Assembly (NCBI GenBank): GCA_035461305.1
Contig: DATHVN010000109.1
Span: 1 to 64,000 of the forward strand
DNA length: 64,000 nt
Direction: 5' to 3'
Source: Euzebyales bacterium
GTDB taxonomy: Bacteria; Actinomycetota; Nitriliruptoria; Euzebyales; JAHELV01
The position numbers were made by a program, and so were the translations under genes. Shown here one piece after another: positions 33,559 to 52,083 of this stretch. The notes below the pieces were generated by a model that had not been told where the DNA came from, made no database searches, and worked only from the letters and a program-made list of their open reading frames with translations. Position 1 is the first letter of the stretch. Every line of letters begins with the position of its first letter.

Positions 33559-34248
33559 TCAGGCGTCCAGCACTCCGCGGGCCGTGATGAACACGTCGTC
33601 GAGCATCTCCGGCGTCAGGCGACCGGTGAACGTGTTCTGTTGGCTGGGGTGGTAGCTGCCGAGAAGCGTGTACCCGCCGACCGTGGCCCGCGCGCCGTGG
33701 CCGAACCGCGGTCGGGGATGGACCGGGCCGAGCTGGCGCAGCAGCGCCTGCCATGCGAAGCCGCCGAGGGCGACCAGCAGGCGGGCCGGCAACAGCTCCA
33801 GCTCGCTGTGCAGCCATGCCGCGCAGGTGTCCCGCTCGGTGGCCGTCGGCCTGTTGGCGGGGGGCGCGCACCGCACCGCGGCGGTGATCCAGCAGTTCCG
33901 CAGCGTCAGGCCGTCGCCGCGCCGCCGCGACGTGGGCTGTGACGCGAAGCCGGTCCGGTGCAGTGACGCGTAGAGGAAGTCCCCGGAGCGGTCACCTGTG
34001 AACATGCGGCCCGTGCGGTTCGCGCCGTGGGCCGCGGGCGCCAGGCCGACGACCACCATGCGCGCAGCGGGGTCACCGAACCCCGGCACCGGACGTGCCC
34101 AGTAGTCCCAGTCGGCGTAGGCCGCGCGCTTGTCGCGACCCACGCGCTCGCGCCACGCGACCAGCCGTGTGCACGCCCGGCACCGCGCCACGCGGTCCGA
34201 CAGCACCTCGAGGCCTGTGGCGTCCGCCGCGGGCGTCCCGCCGGTCAC
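33559..34248 (-). CDS. udgB: Family-5 uracil-DNA glycosylase (UdgB-type)
   Basis: A 229-residue product with GTG start overlapping the upstream stop by four bases. It contains four cysteines positioned for an iron-sulfur cluster (CRACTRLVAW; CWITAAVRCAP; RDTCAAWL), motif A as VVVGLAPAAHGANRTGRMFT lacking the catalytic Asp/Asn of family 1, and the C-terminal LGSYHPSQQNTFTG loop. Family-5 enzymes remove uracil, hypoxanthine and other deaminated bases. It is coupled to a degenerate PPK2 ORF, a pairing without obvious functional sense. Confidence 0.88.
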   Translation of the reverse strand: MTGGTPAADATGLEVLSDRVARCRACTRLVAWRERVGRDKRAAYADWDYWARPVPGFGDPAARMVVVGLAPAAHGANRTGRMFTGDRSGDFLYASLHRTGFASQPTSRRRGDGLTLRNCWITAAVRCAPPANRPTATERDTCAAWLHSELELLPARLLVALGGFAWQALLRQLGPVHPRPRFGHGARATVGGYTLLGSYHPSQQNTFTGRLTPEMLDDVFITARGVLDA

Positions 34249-34637
34249 GTGACGACGGCGTCGTCGAGATCGGGATCGGCCGCGCGGTCCCCCGGGCCCA
34301 TCGTCCGCAACGTCGAGACCACCAGCTGGGCGACGCCCGCGTTGCGTACCGACCGCAGGTCAGCGGGCACCACATGCCGCGGCGCCGCATCGGTGGAGGT
34401 CTCGGCGATGGCCTCTTCGAACGCAGCCATGACGTCTTCCCAGTGGGCGCGCATGTCGACGTCGCCGCGGTTGAACTTCCTGTGCTTGTCGGGCTCGTCG
34501 AGCCTGGCCCGTACCCGCTCGCGCTCGTGGCGGTGCGCCGTGCCGCGCAGTTCCAGCGTGTCGCGAGGGTTCCGCCGCGCGAGCTGTGGTGCCTCGCCTG
34601 GCGGGATGCGGGTCGGTGCCAGCAGGTCCGGGTCCAT
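34245..34637 (-). pseudogene. Core-deleted polyphosphate kinase 2 remnant
   Basis: An intact ORF of 130 residues. Residues 1-35 resemble the N-terminus of PPK2 proteins (RIPPGEAPQLARRNPRDT), and residues 40-115 the C-terminus (RLDEPDKHRKFNRGDVDMRA, then ETSTDAAPRHVVPADLR). About 140 residues in between are missing, including the P-loop (GMDTSGKGG in intact enzymes) and the Walker B segment. Conserved Trp residues of the C-terminus (KHW, APW, KWYRN) are replaced here (KHR, APR, RSVRN), which indicates relaxed selection. It cannot be a kinase. The 3' end overlaps udgB by four bases. An alternative is a new small protein kept for another role. Confidence 0.75.
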
Positions 34638-34675: not shown

Positions 34676-35752
34676 CTACTCGCGATCCTCCGACCACTCG
34701 GGGCATCCAAGCGTTTCCCAGATCCGCTCCCGCACCAGCAGCTGGTAGCCGACCCACTCCTGGGCGAGGCGGCGGCCACCGACCAGGAGCCTGGTCACGA
34801 AGTCGCGGGACCGCGCAGGCAGCCACGCCGTCAGCACCCGCACCTGCTCGATCGGCAGCGGCGTCGCGGGCGACGGTGTCCCGTGGCGCACGAGCAGGTC
34901 GTACATTTGAGCCGCGGGCTCGACCTGCGGCAGCCCCGCTGCCGCCGCCCGCTGGTCGGCACGTCGCGCGGTCTCGAGGTCGGTGGCGTCGAGGTCGCCG
35001 TAGTACAGGATCCGGTCGATGGTCCGGTCGAGCGTGCGCGCGAACTGGACCGAGCTCGCGAAGTAGGAGCCCGCGCCGTGGGCGACCAGGCCGATGGCGG
35101 TCGACGGTGCCTCCACCAGCGCGCGGCGGACGCTGGCGAACATCTCGTGGCCGGACACGACGAGCAGGGTCGCCGTCTGCCCGACCGCGCTGTACACGAA
35201 CGGGGGTGGCACCGGGACGCAGCACAGCAGCTCCCAGCTGAGCCGGTGCGGACCGAACAGCTCGGTCGTGGCGAGCTCGTGCAGCCGGTCCTCGTGGCCC
35301 GCGCCGAACAGGTGCAGCGACCGTTCCCGCGGGGGCACGATGACTGCGGTCGCCGCCTCCTCGGCCAGCCAGCGATTGATCCGCAGCAGGTCGTCGAGCT
35401 GAGCCTGCGTCAGCTCGACCTCCGCCGCCCACGCCAGCTCCGGCGCCCACCGCTCGGCGCGCGCGATCCCGAGCCGCTGCGTCCGCTCGGATGCCGGCAG
35501 CATCTCGATGCGGCGGGGCAGCGGAGGGTCGCGCCGGTCCCACGCGCGAGGGTTCACGGGTAGCGACAGCCAGCTGGCCTGCTCCAGCTCGTCCAGCGCG
35601 CGACGGAGACGCTGGCGGCGGTCGTCGGCGACCAGCAGCTCGGGCGCCGAGCTCAGGAAGCAGCTCCAGATCTCGGCGAGCTGGATCCGGTCCCGCTCGA
35701 CCGCCAGCAGGCAGCGGCGCAGCCGCCAGGCCAGCGGGCTGAGCTCGCTCAC
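34676..35752 (-). CDS. JetD-like (DUF2220/Toprim) protein of a Wadjet-type locus
   Basis: A 358-residue product with a GTG overlapping the stop of the upstream gene (GTGA). Residues 1-130 form a helical N-terminal part as in JetD. Residues about 195-275 match the Toprim-like DUF2220 domain: LLVVSGHEMFASV, a Gly-rich HGAGSYFASSVQFA and ILYYGDLDATDLE with the DxD pair (GDLD, 252-255). JetD is the nuclease subunit of Wadjet, which cuts plasmid DNA. In intact JetD proteins the first motif carries a catalytic Glu (VVEN); the aligned position here is S200-G201, so nuclease activity is doubtful. Its partner ORF is itself an apparent deletion product. Confidence 0.65.
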   Translation of the reverse strand: MSELSPLAWRLRRCLLAVERDRIQLAEIWSCFLSSAPELLVADDRRQRLRRALDELEQASWLSLPVNPRAWDRRDPPLPRRIEMLPASERTQRLGIARAERWAPELAWAAEVELTQAQLDDLLRINRWLAEEAATAVIVPPRERSLHLFGAGHEDRLHELATTELFGPHRLSWELLCCVPVPPPFVYSAVGQTATLLVVSGHEMFASVRRALVEAPSTAIGLVAHGAGSYFASSVQFARTLDRTIDRILYYGDLDATDLETARRADQRAAAAGLPQVEPAAQMYDLLVRHGTPSPATPLPIEQVRVLTAWLPARSRDFVTRLLVGGRRLAQEWVGYQLLVRERIWETLGCPEWSEDRE

Positions 35753-37959
35753 CGGCCCCGTGGGACAACGGCGACCGTGTCCGCCCGTCTCCACATATGT
35801 GTCGCCTCGACCCTGCCCTGCTCGCTCTCGCCGACCGTCGCGCGCTCCACGTGGAGGTTGCCGGACCGTGCGTCCCGACGCTCGTTGCGCAGGCGGATCC
35901 AGTGTGGCAGCACCCCGACCGCCTCGCGGTCGTCGACCGCTGTCGCATAGACCAGCTGCACCCCCATCGCGTCCGCTAAGCGTCGCTGCAGCTGCAGCAG
36001 CGTGACGTTCGACGACGTGCCGATCGGGTTGTCGAGCGTGAGCATCCCGCCGGCCGTCTGCGTCTGGCGGACCTGGGCACGCAGCCGCGCGAGCGTGCAG
36101 TACAGCAGGATGGCCGCCGTCAACTGTTCGCCGCCCGAGAACGTGGCGAGCTCGGTGACCGGGACGCGCTGGGGCCGCAGGGCCGGGTTCGGCTTGAGGA
36201 TCTGGACCGCGAACCCCTCGACGCCGACGGCCGCATGCACCGCGCGCTGCAGCAGTGGCACGCCTGCGGGACGCACGCCCTCGTCGACGAGCTCGTCGAC
36301 CATCACCTCGAGGCGTGCGAGCAGCTCGTCGTCGATCGCCGGTGCGGCGTAGCGGATATGCAGGAAGCGCTGGTCGGACCACTCCCCGAAGCCCGCCGGC
36401 AACGCCGAGACCTGGTCGGCCTGGCGCAGCAGCCACAGCCCGCGCTGGGTGTCGGCGGCGATCTCGCGTACGAGCAGACGCCGGTGGGCGGTGAGCTCCT
36501 CCAGCTTCTGCTCACACTGGGTCAGGCGCATGCGCAGCTGGTCGACGAGCGTTGCGTTGTCGCGCGCCACTCCCACCGGGTCGCTGCCGAGCCGCTCGCG
36601 GATAGGGCCGTCGAGCGGTGAGAACCGGTCGTCGGTCACGAAGCGCCGGACGTCGGCAGCGGCGCCGGCCGCCGCGCCCCCCGCGCGGTCGACGCGGTCC
36701 GCGCCCTCGTCGATCCGCGTGAGGAGGTCGTCGACCAGAGCCCGGGCGCGACCAGGGTCCTCGGGCTCCCACGCGGCGGGGGCGAACCGGCGGTCGTCGC
36801 CGAGGTCGATCAGCTCGGGCGTGTCGCCGTCGTCGGCGGCGCCGTCCTCGCCGCGGCGGGGCTGGAGCAGCAGGTCGATCATGTCCGACAGGCGGACGGG
36901 GCGCGGCGGCACCGGACCGGTCACGCCGGCCACGAAGCGCGCGACGGCGGGCAGGCCCTCGGCCGCCGTGCAGGCCAGGAGTGGGCCGAGCAGCTGATCG
37001 CCCAGCTCGAACGCACGGCTGTCGGTGCTGACCGTGAAGCGTTGGCGCTCCTGCTCCTCGAGGAACGTGGTGCGTGCGCGCAGCAGCAGGGCGTGCAGCT
37101 CGAGGTGGCGCAGCTGGCAGTCCTCGATCAGGTCGAGGAGGATGCCGGCGGCGGGGCGCGTGTCGTGCTCGCCGGCCAGCCCGCGCACGGTGGCGACGAG
37201 GTGGCGCTCCGTCTCGAGGCGCTCGGCGAGGTGCGCGAGCGCATCCGCCAGCAGGTCGGGTACGTCGGCCTGCCAGTCGACCTGGCGGATGTCGTGCCGT
37301 GTCGCGTCGAGGACGCGCTCGACGTTGGAGGCGTACTGGATGGAGCGCAGGCGTGCGGCACGCGCCGTGTGGACGGCCTGATCGAGCCTCCCGCGCCGCA
37401 ACTGGGACGCCAGGATGGCCTCCGCCGCCGCGTGCGCGTCGGCGATGTCGCGGTCGAGTGCTCCAACGAAGAGGATCACCGCCTCGTCGGTGGCACGCAG
37501 CACCACGCTGCCGTCCGGCGCCTCCACCTCCTCCAGCAGCTTGAACGCGACCTCGGCCCGACGGTGGCGGCGGCCCGACCAGTCGCTGTAGGGCAGCGCG
37601 AACGCCTCCCGCCGGTGACGGTCGTTGAGCAGTCCCGTGACGACGGCGTCGGCGACCCGTCGGGACTCCTCGGGGGGACGGTCCGGCGCCGACATCCGCG
37701 CGAGCTGGGCCAGGCGCTGGCGCACCTGCTCGCCGGTTGCGCCGAACTCCAGGCCCATGTGGTCGATGACGGTGTCGATGGCTGCCAGCGCGAGGCCGCG
37801 CAGGTCGTAAGGCGACCAGTCGCCGTCGCGCAGCGCCTTGCCTGCCTCCAGGTCGTGCAGCGGCGCGGTCCGCAGCAGGGCCCTGACGCGACGCACGAAG
37901 CTGTCATCAACCCACGGTGCGTCGGTGAGCGGGAGGCGGGGCGTGGCCGTGTCGACCAT
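35749..37959 (-). CDS. JetA-JetC fusion ORF, probable Wadjet deletion product
   Basis: A 736-residue ORF with no frame breaks. Residues 1 to about 430 resemble the JetA/MukF-like kleisin subunit: a helical N-terminus, LRATDEAVILFVGALDRDIA, ASQLRRGRLDQAVHTARAAR, then LLLQPRRGED and an acidic stretch. Residues about 470-736 resemble the end of the JetC SMC protein: a coiled-coil helix, the ABC signature FSGGEQ (607-612), Walker B TLDNPIGTSS (about 636-645) and VQLVYATAVDD. No Walker A motif exists anywhere, and no JetB-like gene is present. The simplest reading is an in-frame deletion from late jetA through jetB to late jetC. An SMC half-head without its Walker A half cannot hydrolyse ATP alone. 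JetD-like gene follows with a 4-bp overlap. Confidence 0.65.
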   Translation of the reverse strand: MVDTATPRLPLTDAPWVDDSFVRRVRALLRTAPLHDLEAGKALRDGDWSPYDLRGLALAAIDTVIDHMGLEFGATGEQVRQRLAQLARMSAPDRPPEESRRVADAVVTGLLNDRHRREAFALPYSDWSGRRHRRAEVAFKLLEEVEAPDGSVVLRATDEAVILFVGALDRDIADAHAAAEAILASQLRRGRLDQAVHTARAARLRSIQYASNVERVLDATRHDIRQVDWQADVPDLLADALAHLAERLETERHLVATVRGLAGEHDTRPAAGILLDLIEDCQLRHLELHALLLRARTTFLEEQERQRFTVSTDSRAFELGDQLLGPLLACTAAEGLPAVARFVAGVTGPVPPRPVRLSDMIDLLLQPRRGEDGAADDGDTPELIDLGDDRRFAPAAWEPEDPGRARALVDDLLTRIDEGADRVDRAGGAAAGAAADVRRFVTDDRFSPLDGPIRERLGSDPVGVARDNATLVDQLRMRLTQCEQKLEELTAHRRLLVREIAADTQRGLWLLRQADQVSALPAGFGEWSDQRFLHIRYAAPAIDDELLARLEVMVDELVDEGVRPAGVPLLQRAVHAAVGVEGFAVQILKPNPALRPQRVPVTELATFSGGEQLTAAILLYCTLARLRAQVRQTQTAGGMLTLDNPIGTSSNVTLLQLQRRLADAMGVQLVYATAVDDREAVGVLPHWIRLRNERRDARSGNLHVERATVGESEQGRVEATHMWRRADTVAVVPRGR

Positions 37960-38241
37960 GGGGCTGGAGCCTATCGAGCGGTGTCAAACCGATTTGCAGC
38001 CTCGGAGGCCCGTGACGATCGCCGGCCGTGAGGTCGACCACTGCAGCCGGCGGTACGCATCCGAGCGCGTTTCCCAGCTGTACCTGGGCGGAGTCCCGAG
38101 CGAGATGGCTTGGGTGCCGTGGGAGAGGGTCGTGACACTGATGACAGATGACCAGGCGAAGTCCATCGCCCGACTCTGGGGCGCACGCAGGGTTGGAACG
38201 ACATCGTCGACCCCTGACGATCGACGATCCTCAGCGACTGC
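37960..38241 (+). other. Gap upstream of the Wadjet-like locus, possible small ORF
   Basis: A GTG at 38012 with GGAGG just upstream opens a frame reading TIAGREVDHCSRRYASERVS and PSEMAWVPWERVVTLMTDDQ, which looks protein-like for about 65 residues before turning into the antisense shadow of the next gene. It may be the start of a truncated small gene. Family unknown. Confidence 0.3.
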
Positions 38242-38675
38242 TCAGAGTCCGTTCGGCGGCAGCGCGAACACGTGGGGAAGCATCGCAACCGGGATGCCCG
38301 CTGCCAGCGCAAGGGTGTTCGTAGCTGCCGCCGGAGGGACGCACAGCTCGGGACGTCCGCTGAAGACGACGGCCGTCTCCATACCTAGCCGCGGAGCCTG
38401 CATGACCCACTCGGCGACTTCGAGGTGCAGTTCGCCGATGTTGGGTCCGCTGCTGGAATAGAAGTCCGATAGGTCCTCCACCTGAACGCCGATCTGTGGA
38501 AGAACACCGGACAGCCAACCGCGGATGTCGGGCTCGTCGATCAGGTGGAAGACTTCTCCATGTTCCCGATGCGGTGGATGATGGCCGTACGCGCGTCAGC
38601 TGCCTCCTGGGGCATCAGTTCGCCAATCGCCGAAGGCAGCCGCATCGGCCCGATGATCGTGAGTGAGCCAGCCAT
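38242..38675 (-). pseudogene. Frameshifted hypothetical gene
   Basis: Two minus-strand frames carry consecutive protein-like sequence. The first runs from the ATG at 38675 (MAGSLTIIGPMRLPSAIGEL, then ARTAIIHRIGNME) and stops at 38541. The second, in another frame, continues from about 38560 (VFHLIDEPDIRGWLSG) through DFYSSSGPNIGELHLEVAEW to a stop at 38242. The join at GGAGAAGTC fits a duplicated GA dinucleotide. Without the shift the product would be about 140 residues. The family is not recognised. A GTG at 38481 could still start the second half. Confidence 0.5.
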
Positions 38676-38733
38676 TCATCAGCATTCTGTCGATCGAGCG
38701 GTAGCACCCCGTCCTGGCGACGTGCTCGATCAG

Positions 38734-39093
38734 TCAGACGACGATGTCATCGCGCAGTCCGAGGACCGGCCGCGCAAGGCGATCGATCTCTTCCTGTGGA
38801 ACGCCGAGCTCCTGGAGAGCTACGACCAGGTGGCCGACAAGTGTGTCGAACTCGCCGTTCGTGATGTCCAGATGCTCGTCGGCATCGCGCATGCTGGCAC
38901 CAGAGTAGGTGTTCGGGCCACCGGCGACGGCGGTGATCATCGCGCGCTGGTGAGCCTTGAGGCGCGCGAGGTTCACCCCTTCGAAGTGGTGGTTGACGCG
39001 TTCGTCGGCGAGCACCTTTCGATAGAAGAGGTCCACCGCGGCCCGGACTGCATCAGTACCGCCGATCCTGTCATACGGTGGTCTGCGGCGCAC
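38734..39093 (-). CDS. Group 1 truncated haemoglobin with altered proximal site
   Basis: A 119-residue product, the normal trHbN length, start GTG at 39093. The two-over-two globin pattern is visible: YDRIGGTDAVRAAVDLFYRK (with the B10 Tyr at 24), AHQRAMITAVAGGPNTYSG, then ITNGEFDTLVGHLVVALQEL. In this group the proximal heme His lies in the MR-x-x-H segment before the LxIT motif. Here that segment reads MRDADEHLDIT, with Asp at the proximal position (72) and a His two residues later (74). Heme binding may be shifted or lost. It overlaps the end of a frame-disrupted upstream gene and lies between two pseudogenes. Confidence 0.75.
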   Translation of the reverse strand: MRRRPPYDRIGGTDAVRAAVDLFYRKVLADERVNHHFEGVNLARLKAHQRAMITAVAGGPNTYSGASMRDADEHLDITNGEFDTLVGHLVVALQELGVPQEEIDRLARPVLGLRDDIVV

Positions 39094-39608
39094 CGTCTCC
39101 CAGAGCCATCGTCTTCTCCTGTTCGTCCCGTTCGAATGGTCGTACGTCAGGCACTGTCACGATCGTCTCGCGAAGTCCGAGAATCGTCGGCGTCAACTGC
39201 TCAACGAGCCGGGGATCCTCGGCGGGTACGAGGCGCGCGTGTACTGGGACGGCGTTCAGTTCGTGGTGCCTCGCCGATCTCGGCGCGCCGGGCGCGGGCG
39301 AACGCGACGGTCTGCGCCCAGAACTCGCCGTCGTCGTCCTGCTCCCACCAACCGGTGACCTCCTCACGAAGTCCGTGACGACGGACGTAGTTCAGTAGCG
39401 CACCCACCTGCCGCTCGCTGATCGTCTCGCCGGGATCGCTCGACTGCTGCGCTGCGGTCTCGAGCGCGGCCAGATCCCGGACGAGTTGGGCTTCCGTATC
39501 ACGGCGGATCGCGCCGGTTCGCGCGAGAACGGTCACGGCGAAGTCCGGCCGATCCGGCTCCTCCCAGAAGTAGGCGAGCAGGCGCGCATGGGGGTGCGAG
39601 ATCGTCAT
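39071..39608 (-). pseudogene. Frame-disrupted hypothetical gene upstream of the globin
   Basis: The ATG at 39608 opens a frame with protein-like sequence (HPHARLLAYFWEEPDRPDFA, LNYVRRHGLREEVTGWWEQD, ARARRAEIGEA), after which it becomes Arg-rich and stops at 39201. From about 39270 a second frame continues in protein style (HHELNAVPVHARLVPAEDPR, then LTPTILGLRETIVTVPDVRP) to a stop at 39071, overlapping the globin start. Read together they make about 178 residues. I do not recognise the family. A sequencing error is an alternative to a true frameshift. Confidence 0.5.
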
Positions 39609-40663
39609 GCGGCCCGGTTGTCGTCTTCCGACGTCTGGCGCGTACGTGTTACCTCGAGCCGATGCGCCAGCACGTCGTGTTCGACTGCCCTCCAGCATGG
39701 CCCCTGACCCTTCGATCACGGCATGCTACTACGATGAGTCTGGTCAGCGTAGCAATATGTTGGCATGTGACCACTCGGATGGGCTAGTCAAACGGCGGTT
39801 TTCGCCGGAACGGCGGTGTCGCCCGGCCGGAGGCGCGGTGCGACACCGGATTCCTCGGCCGGGACCGGGCCTGCATTTGTCACGACCGACATCGACGTAC
39901 TGGCAGCTGATCGATGCACGCCGTCGCCCAGCGGTCCCATCCGAGCGCCAGCGGGTCTTGGCGCTCGTACACGGTATCGCCGATGCGACGGCGACCACGT
40001 TGTTCGCGGGCAAACCGCACGCTGGAGGTCGTCGACCACATCGGCGACCTGCCGGCTGACGTGGATGGTGATCCCAACGCGCACCGAGCACTCGGCTTGC
40101 GCCCAGCCCGTGTCATCACCAGGACTCCTCGTGGCAGCTTGCTGACGCAACAGTCGTGTCCGGTGCTGGCGCCGGCTGGAGGTCCAGGGCAATCGGTGTA
40201 GGGCCGCTTCGGATGGTCGTCGCTGCCCCGCGCACACTGCATTCCGGCGTTCCGGTGCTTCTCGACTTCATTGCGGACTGGTTCGTGAGACGTTGATCCA
40301 CGACTCTCGTGGCTCGACCTGGATCGAGGCGACACCTGCCGATCCGTCGGACCGGGGGCAGGGGTTCGAACCTGATGTTCTGCCCGCCCGTCGTCGATCA
40401 CAGCCACGCGACGTCCCCACACGCCACAGGCGGACGGATCGAACGAAGCGCTGGCCGCTCTCACGACGTCTGTGCCGAAGTCCTCGATGCGACCGGGGCA
40501 ACCGCGTCGCGATCTCACAGATGCGTGAGCGGTGACTACCTCCAGTCGGTGACCGCCCGTCGCCGACCTCCATGCGCAGCCGAAGCTGTCCGACCACCGC
40601 TTCTCGGCGACCACGGCCGACCGCGTGCGGCGGTCGGGACTCAAGCCCTGACGCCCGGGGCGG
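39609..40663 (+). other. About 1 kb with no recognisable gene
   Basis: No frame on either strand reads like a folded protein for more than about 30 residues. It contains the palindrome GGTTCGAACC (40363-40372) flanked by GGGCAG (40356-40361) and CTGCCC (40380-40385), which recalls a tRNA T-arm, but no complete tRNA can be folded. With the neighbouring broken genes it looks like decayed accessory DNA. Confidence 0.4.
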
Positions 40664-42001
40664 TCAGGCCACCGTCTCGATCGTCGGGCGCAGGTCCCGT
40701 TCGGGCGGCGTCCACGTCATGGCGTCCGCCGGCACCTGGTCGCCGGATCGTATGTCGCGGACGCTGTCGCTGTCGACCTCACCGTGGGCCGGGAACCACA
40801 CGAAGGGGATGCCGCGGCGGTCGGCGTGGCGGATCTGCTTTCCGAAGCGGACTGGCTCGTGGAACACCTCGGCGGCGATGCCGCGTGCGCGCAGCTCCCG
40901 GGCGATCGCGGCGGACCGGTCCCGGGTCTCCTCGGCGACCAGAGCGACCAGCACGCACGTGGGTGTCGAGCGCGAGGCCGCGATGGCGCCACCGCCCAGG
41001 AAGCGCCCGAGCAGGCGGGATACGCCGACCGAGACACCGACACCGGGCAGCGCGTGCCCGTCGCCGGACGCCAGGTCGTCATAGCGCCCGCCCGAGCAGA
41101 TCGACCCGAGGTCGGCGTGGCTCTCGATGGTCGACTCGTAGACGGTGCCGGTGTAGTAGTCGAGACCGCGGGCGACGTGCAGGTCGGCCAGGACCGAGCC
41201 GTGCGGTAGCGCGGAAGTGGCTGCGATCACGGACGCCAGCTCGTCGACGCCCCGTGCCAGCAGGTCGTCGGTGACGCCGAGCGCCGCGACCTCGTCGACG
41301 AAGCCCGTGTCGGGCGTCCGGATCGTCGCCAGCCGGAGCCAGCGGTCCGCCTCGGCGTCGTCCATGGCGACCTGGTCGCACAGCATCTCGCGCACGGCGG
41401 CCGCGCCGACCTTGTCGACCTTGTCGAGCGCGCGGACGACCTCGGTCGTGTCCTCACGGCCCAGGCCGGCACCGAAGCCGTCGAGGATGCGACGGTTGCT
41501 GACCAGCACCGTGGCGCGTGGAACGGGCAGGGTCGCCAGCAGCTCGTGCATGATCACCGGCATCTCGGCGTCGAAGTGCAGCGGCAGCTCGCCGTCGGCG
41601 ACGACGTCGAGGTCGGCCTGGTAGAACTCGCGGTACCGCCCCTCCTGCGGTCGCTCGCCACGCCAGACCTTCTGGATCTGGTAGCGCTTGAATGGGAAGC
41701 GCAGGTGCCCGCGGAACTGCCGGACGTAGCGCGCCAGCGGCACGGTCAGATCGAAGTGCAGGCCCAGCTCGTCGGCGTCGTCGTCACCTTGCAGCCGGCC
41801 GACGGTGTAGATCTCCTTGGTCGTCTCGCCCTGGTGCACGAGGTGCTCCAGCGGCTCCACGGCGCGCGTCTCCAACGGCACGAAGCCGTAGAGCTCGGCG
41901 AGGTGCCGGATGCGGTCGAGCAGCTCCTGTTCGACCATCCGCTGCTCGGGCAGCCACTCGGGGAAGCCGCTGAGCGGTGTGATCTGCGATCTGGAGGACA
42001 C
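40664..42001 (-). CDS. hisS: Histidyl-tRNA synthetase
   Basis: A 445-residue product starting at the GTG at 42001 (GGAAGG about 10 nt upstream); a GTG at 42025 is the alternative. Class II motifs are present: LTVPLARYVRQF region, motif 2 in KVWRGERPQEGRYREFYQAD, the histidine motifs VARGLDYYTGTVYE and SICSGGRYDDL, and motif 3 in VGVSVGVSRLLGRFL. The C-terminal anticodon-binding domain (VLVALVAEETRDRSAAIA to the end) is complete. It charges tRNA-His. The gene stands alone, divergent from the malic enzyme. Confidence 0.93.
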   Translation of the reverse strand: MSSRSQITPLSGFPEWLPEQRMVEQELLDRIRHLAELYGFVPLETRAVEPLEHLVHQGETTKEIYTVGRLQGDDDADELGLHFDLTVPLARYVRQFRGHLRFPFKRYQIQKVWRGERPQEGRYREFYQADLDVVADGELPLHFDAEMPVIMHELLATLPVPRATVLVSNRRILDGFGAGLGREDTTEVVRALDKVDKVGAAAVREMLCDQVAMDDAEADRWLRLATIRTPDTGFVDEVAALGVTDDLLARGVDELASVIAATSALPHGSVLADLHVARGLDYYTGTVYESTIESHADLGSICSGGRYDDLASGDGHALPGVGVSVGVSRLLGRFLGGGAIAASRSTPTCVLVALVAEETRDRSAAIARELRARGIAAEVFHEPVRFGKQIRHADRRGIPFVWFPAHGEVDSDSVRDIRSGDQVPADAMTWTPPERDLRPTIETVA

Positions 42002-51629: not shown

Positions 51630-52083
51630 ATGGAGTACCTCGACGCCGCGTGGGATGCGGGCATCACCTCTGTCGACGTCGCGCGCTCCTACGGTCGGGC
51701 CGAGGCGTTCCTGGCCGCGTGCTGGAGCCGTCCGCGGGCCCGATGCTGTCGACCGCCCACGAGGCGGGCATGAGGTGATCGTCAAGGAGGGCGTCGCCAA
51801 CGACCGGCTGACGCCACGGGGTGGCGACCCGGTCGTCCGCGGCGTGCTCGACCCGGTCGGGGCGCGCCAGGGGGTGACGACCGATGCGGTCGCGCTGGCC
51901 GCGGTCCTGGCGCAGCCGTGGGCCGACGTCGTCCTGTCGAGCGCCGCGACCGTCGCGCACCTGCACGCCAACATGCGGGCGTTCGACGTGCGGCTGACTT
52001 CCCGGGACGGCGACGCGCTGGACGGCATCGCGGAGCAAACCGACACCTACTGGGATCACCGTGGTGACCTGCCGTGGGGGTAG
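51630..52083 (+). pseudogene. Aldo/keto reductase remnant
   Basis: The ATG at 51630 (TAGGCT box 8 nt upstream) opens EYLDAAWDAGITSVDVARSY with GRAEAFLAA, the cofactor/catalytic Tyr region of aldo/keto reductases. The frame then turns into Arg-rich sequence. From about 51770, in another frame, the C-terminal part follows: VIVKEGVANDRLTPRGGDPV, VALAAVLAQPWADVVLSSAA and YWDHRGDLPW to a stop at 52083. Roughly the central half of the protein and the frame are lost, so it is inactive. Confidence 0.75.

What the first reader, a model, noticed from the sequence alone, without database searches (positions are those of the whole stretch)
34676..37959. Collapsed Wadjet locus: JetA-JetC fusion ORF followed by a JetD-like gene
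A single uninterrupted 736-codon ORF has a JetA/MukF-like N-terminus and the C-terminal half-head of a JetC-type SMC (FSGGEQ, Walker B), but no Walker A, no JetB and no long coiled coil. The JetD-like gene follows with a GTGA overlap. Either this is the scar of an in-frame deletion that removed the middle of jetABCD, or a minimal relative of Wadjet in which the kleisin carries half an ATPase head and needs a partner in trans. The second possibility would be new.
Basis: partly seen in the sequence, partly recalled or inferred. Interest (0 to 1): 0.75.

Follow-up and report, generated by a model that had tools for sequence, protein, structure and literature searches.

The report
Eroded Wadjet operon with fusion scar
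A bacterial anti-plasmid machine (Wadjet type III) has lost its middle in one deletion that happened to leave a single uninterrupted gene, so the fused gene is almost certainly a broken remnant, while the DNA-cutting partner gene beside it survives here and, alone, in a sister species.

Summary
The minus-strand ORF 35749-37959 (736 codons) joins residues 1-398 of a type III Wadjet JetA to the last ~337 residues of a type III JetC; jetD (34676-35752, GTGA overlap) follows. Relatives carry four separate genes, and one in-frame deletion of ~4.4 kb (end of jetA, all of jetB, first ~1,110 codons of jetC with Walker A) explains everything. No other genome searched has the fusion (the whole class, 66 genomes; 397 across the phylum). 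The host assembly (~98% complete) has no jetB and no JetC N-terminal half, so no partner in trans. Both halves evolved no faster than in the sister's operon, so the deletion is probably recent; no minimal machine need be invoked. Assembly error cannot be excluded without reads. Unexpected: sister species G001 has its own deletion from the jetA start to the jetC end, again open in frame into jetD, and keeps only jetD, which shows no acceleration. The genus's JetD also lacks the usual Toprim Glu-Asn motif. An orphan JetD with its own role is the most novel reading left open.

The parts
36766..37959 (-). jetA-derived part of the fused ORF (residues 1-398): kleisin N-terminal part; JetA C-terminus missing
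   Evidence: PADLOC JetA3 3e-114, profile 6-395/504; DNA colinear with G002 C97 from 36769; alignment A1
36763..36769 (-). deletion junction (resolved to about 6 bases)
   Evidence: blastn breakpoints against G002
35749..36765 (-). jetC-derived part of the fused ORF (about residues 399-736): C-terminal half-head with FSGGEQ signature and Walker B region
   Evidence: PADLOC JetC3 1e-81, profile 1113-1448/1453; alignment A2
34676..35752 (-). jetD, intact ORF, start overlaps the fused ORF's stop (GTGA); DLD motif kept, Toprim motif 1 is SGHEMF instead of ENxxTY
   Evidence: PADLOC JetD3 1.2e-83
34245..34637 (-). neighbouring PPK2 gene with an in-frame internal loss of 141 residues including Walker A; relaxed constraint (context, not a Wadjet gene)

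Best explanation
The locus is the remnant of a type III Wadjet operon (jetABCD) that suffered one in-frame deletion of about 4.4 kb between jetA codon ~398 and jetC codon ~1113. Shown: what is missing (JetA C-terminus, JetB, JetC Walker A, hinge and nearly all coiled coil) and that nothing in the held assembly supplies it. Inferred: the protein cannot form a composite ATPase head or an SMC ring, so plasmid restriction is lost; jetD is still translated through the preserved GTGA coupling; the deletion is recent compared with the split from the sister species; the locus is in repeated decay in this genus.
For: Profile matches switch from JetA3 395/504 to JetC3 1113/1453 at one point. Sister genome G002 has jetA, jetB, jetC (split by a contig end) and jetD in the same chromosomal context; G023 has the intact operon on one contig. 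The fusion is unique to this genome. jetB and the JetC N-half are absent from the assembly with working positive controls. No acceleration of the fused halves. Independent erosion nearby: PPK2, G001 jetABC loss, G018 jetC truncation without jetD. All four subunits and JetC ATPase are required in studied Wadjets (PMC10586767).
Against: The reading frame survived the deletion (1 in 3 by chance) and both halves still look constrained, which a selected fusion would also give. No reads were available, so the junction itself is not verified.
Confidence: 0.77

Rival explanations
1. Assembly artefact or strain chimera: the organism carries intact jetABCD and the assembler joined jetA to the jetC 3' end.
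For: The genome is a draft of 237 contigs with 4.14% contamination; in the sister genome the same operon is broken by a contig end inside jetC; the fused halves show no decay.
Against: The contig is 132 kb and colinear with the sister on both sides. In the sister the longest exact word shared by the two breakpoint regions is 12 nt and not at the junction, so there is no k-mer to collapse on. No jetB or JetC N-half on any other contig. The locus is truly eroded in G001 and G018.
Confidence: 0.13
2. The fusion is a functional minimal Wadjet relative: a kleisin carrying half an ATPase head that works with a partner in trans.
For: Open frame; dN/dS 0.15-0.20 in both halves; no change at invariant columns.
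Against: Unique to one genome; no N-terminal SMC half and no JetB detected in the assembly; JetA C-terminal part missing; recency explains the constraint.
Confidence: 0.04
3. Compatible with the scar, but different in emphasis: jetABC decays while jetD is actively kept, because JetD has a role without JetABC. The in-frame relics act as leaders that keep jetD translated.
For: Window and G001 have different jetA-jetC deletions and both leave an open frame from the jetA start to the jetD GTG. G001 JetD is not accelerated (24 unique changes against 23 in G002; hisS 26:22) with dN/dS 0.23, while the 20-codon jetC relic before it differs from G002 evenly over codon positions (8, 8, 10). Genus-wide JetD motif change SxHE[TM]F.
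Against: The relic is only 60 nt and its alignment is short; two in-frame events have a 1 in 9 chance; window JetD is faster (48 unique changes against 24 and 23); in G018 the jetD end was lost and jetA/jetB kept.
Confidence: 0.28

Closest known systems
Wadjet type III (PADLOC JetA3, JetC3, JetD3)
   Same: Both halves of the fused ORF and the JetD gene match type III models strongly; same gene order A..C-D and GTG(A) coupling to jetD; same chromosomal context as the intact sister operon
   Different: No JetB, no JetC N-terminal half (Walker A), no hinge or long coiled coil, JetA C-terminus missing: cannot be complete
Spontaneous Wadjet deletion mutants (C. cellulovorans jetABCD deletion, PMC12287153; M. 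smegmatis EptABCD null mutation, cited in PMC10586767)
   Same: Natural or spontaneous loss of the system by mutation or deletion
   Different: Here the deletion is internal to the operon, leaves an in-frame fusion and keeps jetD
MukBEF / MksBEF
   Same: Model of the fusion finds MukF N-domain, MukE-MukF and MukB head structures
   Different: Those are complete SMC-kleisin-KITE sets; no fused kleisin-half-head

Membership tests
Wadjet type III (functional system) | JetA kleisin, complete | tested here: not met
   JetA3 profile covered only to 395/504; sister JetA covers 6-483
Wadjet type III (functional system) | JetB (KITE) present | tested here: not met
   No match in the own genome at E<=10; found in G002, G006, G018, G023, G100, G396
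Wadjet type III (functional system) | JetC with Walker A (N-terminal half) | tested here: not met
   Only profile 1113-1448/1453 present; N-half not found in the own genome
Wadjet type III (functional system) | JetC C-terminal half-head with signature and Walker B | tested here: met
   FSGGEQ and LTLDNPIG, no change at invariant columns
Wadjet type III (functional system) | JetD nuclease gene present | tested here: met
   JetD3 1.2e-83
Wadjet type III (functional system) | JetD Toprim motif 1 Glu and DxD | tested here: inconclusive
   DLD kept; Glu-Asn of motif 1 replaced by Ser-Gly with a Glu three residues on, also in the intact sister
Wadjet type III (as an eroded descendant) | Homology of every retained segment and shared locus with an intact operon | tested here: met
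   Colinear DNA with G002 on both sides of the junction; PADLOC type III
   No NCBIfam match up to E 1
SMC-kleisin fold (MukF/JetA and MukB/JetC) | Structural similarity of the two parts | tested here: inconclusive
   Top PDB hits are JetABC, MukBEF and MukEF chains (best E 9.7e-4) but mean pLDDT 67.5 and TM-scores below 0.2 on the query
Wadjet | Restricts small circular plasmids | not testable with these tools
   Needs an experiment

The most novel reading that the evidence does not exclude
In this genus JetD has been freed from Wadjet: after independent losses of jetABC it is kept under purifying selection as a near-orphan, translated behind in-frame relics of jetA-jetC, with a changed Toprim motif and a function that does not need the SMC motor.
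Probability: 0.2. Interest if true: 0.65.

Novelty: new member of a known kind. Interest (0 to 1): 0.36.

Why it matters
It removes a candidate 'minimal Wadjet' and replaces it with a deletion scar whose age is bounded. The genus gives a small natural series: intact jetABCD (G002), jetA-jetC fusion with jetD (window), jetD alone (G001). That series makes it testable whether JetD has a life without JetABC, and how plasmid-defence operons die.

Tried and rejected
PDB sequence search with the JetC-part profile gave chance matches only. Pfam and NCBIfam gave no match for the fusion. One genome-contig scan and one viral-contig scan for the fusion: one distant JetA in Actinomadura, nothing viral. 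Recombination at a long direct repeat was rejected: the 12-nt word shared by jetA and jetC in G002 is not at the window's junction. Decay of the fused ORF was looked for and not seen. Systematic internal deletions as an assembly signature: only one further case was flagged by the scan of the 64 kb, though that scan was coarse and missed PPK2. A first own-genome search with full-length JetC failed technically and was replaced by the JetC N-half.

Full report
What is there. The minus strand carries an uninterrupted 736-codon ORF at 35749-37959, followed by a 358-residue ORF at 34676-35752 whose GTG start overlaps the preceding TGA. PADLOC places residues 14-398 on JetA3 (profile 6-395 of 504, 3e-114), residues 399-728 on JetC3 (profile 1113-1448 of 1453, 1e-81) and the second protein on JetD3 (1.2e-83). 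Pfam gives only a sub-threshold JetD_C match and NCBIfam nothing.

What the intact version looks like. G002, of the same genus, has jetA (476 aa), jetB (247 aa) and the first 332 residues of jetC at the end of contig C97, and the last 1126 residues of jetC plus jetD at the end of contig C133; the contig break lies inside jetC. PADLOC confirms JetA3 over 6-483/504 and JetC3 over 2-316 and 407-1450. PADLOC has no match for this jetB; its identity rests on its place in the operon and on homologues in the other operons. G023, of the same order, has the operon on one contig with a 1492-aa JetC. The window is colinear with C133 up to position 36763 and with C97 from 36769, so the junction is resolved to about six bases. 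From the G023 positions (12078 and 7631) about 4.4 kb is missing: the jetA 3' end, jetB and about 1,110 codons of jetC, including the Walker A (LRNGGGKSS in G002).

Uniqueness and partners. None of the 66 genomes of the class and none of 397 genomes sampled over the phylum has the fusion; nearly all relatives that match carry jetA and jetC as separate ORFs about 6 kb apart. The host assembly (97.98% complete) has no match for jetB or the JetC N-terminal half at E up to 10, while the same queries find them in six other genomes. A partner in trans is not in evidence.

Age and constraint. Against G002 the JetA part has dN/dS 0.20 and the JetC part 0.15, at the level of neighbouring genes. With G023 as outgroup, window-specific and G002-specific amino-acid changes are 21:23 (JetA part) and 11:12 (JetC part), and no column invariant in the other homologues has changed. 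A rough estimate of mine from the 32:35 total is that the gene can have been free of constraint for only about a tenth of the time since the two species split. Milder departures are N162I at a near-invariant JetA site and Thr in place of Lys/Arg beside Walker B, a position that varies elsewhere. A recent deletion, an assembly error and a still-selected fusion all predict this pattern. The first is favoured because the fusion is unique, the partners are missing and the locus is being eroded elsewhere. An assembly error lacks a repeat to act on: in G002 the longest word shared near the breakpoints is 12 nt and is not at the junction.

Erosion of the locus. The PPK2 gene next to jetD has lost 141 residues in frame, with its Walker A; its tail has dN/dS 0.63 against G002 and has lost conserved tryptophans and basic residues, so it looks like an older pseudogene. 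In G018 (same order) jetA and jetB remain, jetC is cut after about 260-270 residues, and no jetD was found in the 18 kb read. In G001 (same genus) the uracil-DNA-glycosylase-like gene and hisS lie 1.4 kb apart with only jetD between them. There the jetA start codon is followed in frame by 20 codons that align with the end of jetC, then the GTGA of jetD. The join lies at a near-repeat: GTCGATGCGAC at the jetA start and GTCGACGCGAC near the jetC end of G002.

JetD. In G001 JetD has 24 unique amino-acid changes against 23 in G002 (hisS 26:22; UDG-like 8:14) and dN/dS 0.23, although jetABC is gone. The 20-codon jetC relic before it differs from G002 evenly over codon positions (8, 8, 10), whereas window and G002 differ there as 3, 4, 12. 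On only 60 nt, this suggests that the G001 deletion is not new and that JetD is kept without JetABC. In the window JetD has 48 unique changes, more than the two control genes predict, so the case is not uniform. All three species replace Toprim motif 1 (EN..[TS]Y in the other type III JetDs read here) by SxHE[TM]F and keep DLD. Whether the shifted Glu can serve is open. PDB entry 8q72, titled JetABCD(E248A), suggests a catalytic Glu in type I JetD; that it corresponds to motif 1 is my inference.

Fold. A model from 15 aligned sequences (mean pLDDT 67.5, pTM 0.38) has its best PDB matches to JetABC (9qxx_B, E 9.7e-4), MukBEF (7nyw_A) and MukE-MukF (3euh_B) chains, with MukF 1-287 (1t98) further down. 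Scores are weak, but the identities agree with the profile assignments.

Function. In studied Wadjets all four subunits are needed, and cleavage requires ATP and a working JetC ATPase (PMC10586767). The locus should therefore be dead as a plasmid-restriction system, with JetD still translatable. Spontaneous loss of Wadjet by deletion is documented (PMC12287153), and PADLOC's authors describe a broken jetC and defence-system pseudogenes (PMC9252829). I rate the deletion scar at 0.77, assembly error at 0.13 and a functional minimal fusion at 0.04. Selection on jetD alone (0.28) is compatible with the scar and is not additive with it.

Noticed in passing
L055 1208-2322 (G001:C125): Orphan jetD in a same-genus species, behind a 21-codon relic that starts with the jetA ATG and ends with the jetC stop (MVDATPTRRCAGTRTSPFGAR).
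   Followed up: partly
window 34676-35752; L010; L055: JetD of all three species of the genus has SxHE[TM]F where other type III JetDs have the Toprim motif EN..[TS]Y; the DLD motif is kept.
   Followed up: partly
window 34245-34637 (-): PPK2 gene with an in-frame loss of 141 residues including Walker A and a relaxed tail; the genome has another PPK2 on contig C134.
   Followed up: yes
L012 5735-8800 (G018:C21): A complementary scar in another family: jetA, jetB and the first ~260-270 residues of jetC remain, the rest of jetC and jetD are not found.
   Followed up: partly
window 37990-40676: 2.7 kb between the fused jetA and hisS that is absent from G002; it holds a bacterial globin ORF (38734-39093, Pfam Bac_globin 1.6e-18) and stretches without clear genes.
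   Followed up: no
window 51755-51766: Another internal deletion against G002 (132 residues of the G002 ORF at C97 12508-13524 missing), not clearly in frame.
   Followed up: no
G003 (same genus): Neither hisS nor the UDG-like gene was found in this 96% complete assembly, so the state of the locus there is unknown.
   Followed up: no
G238:C1:983286-984347 (L033): A second, more divergent JetA-like ORF in a genome that already has a type III JetA.
   Followed up: no
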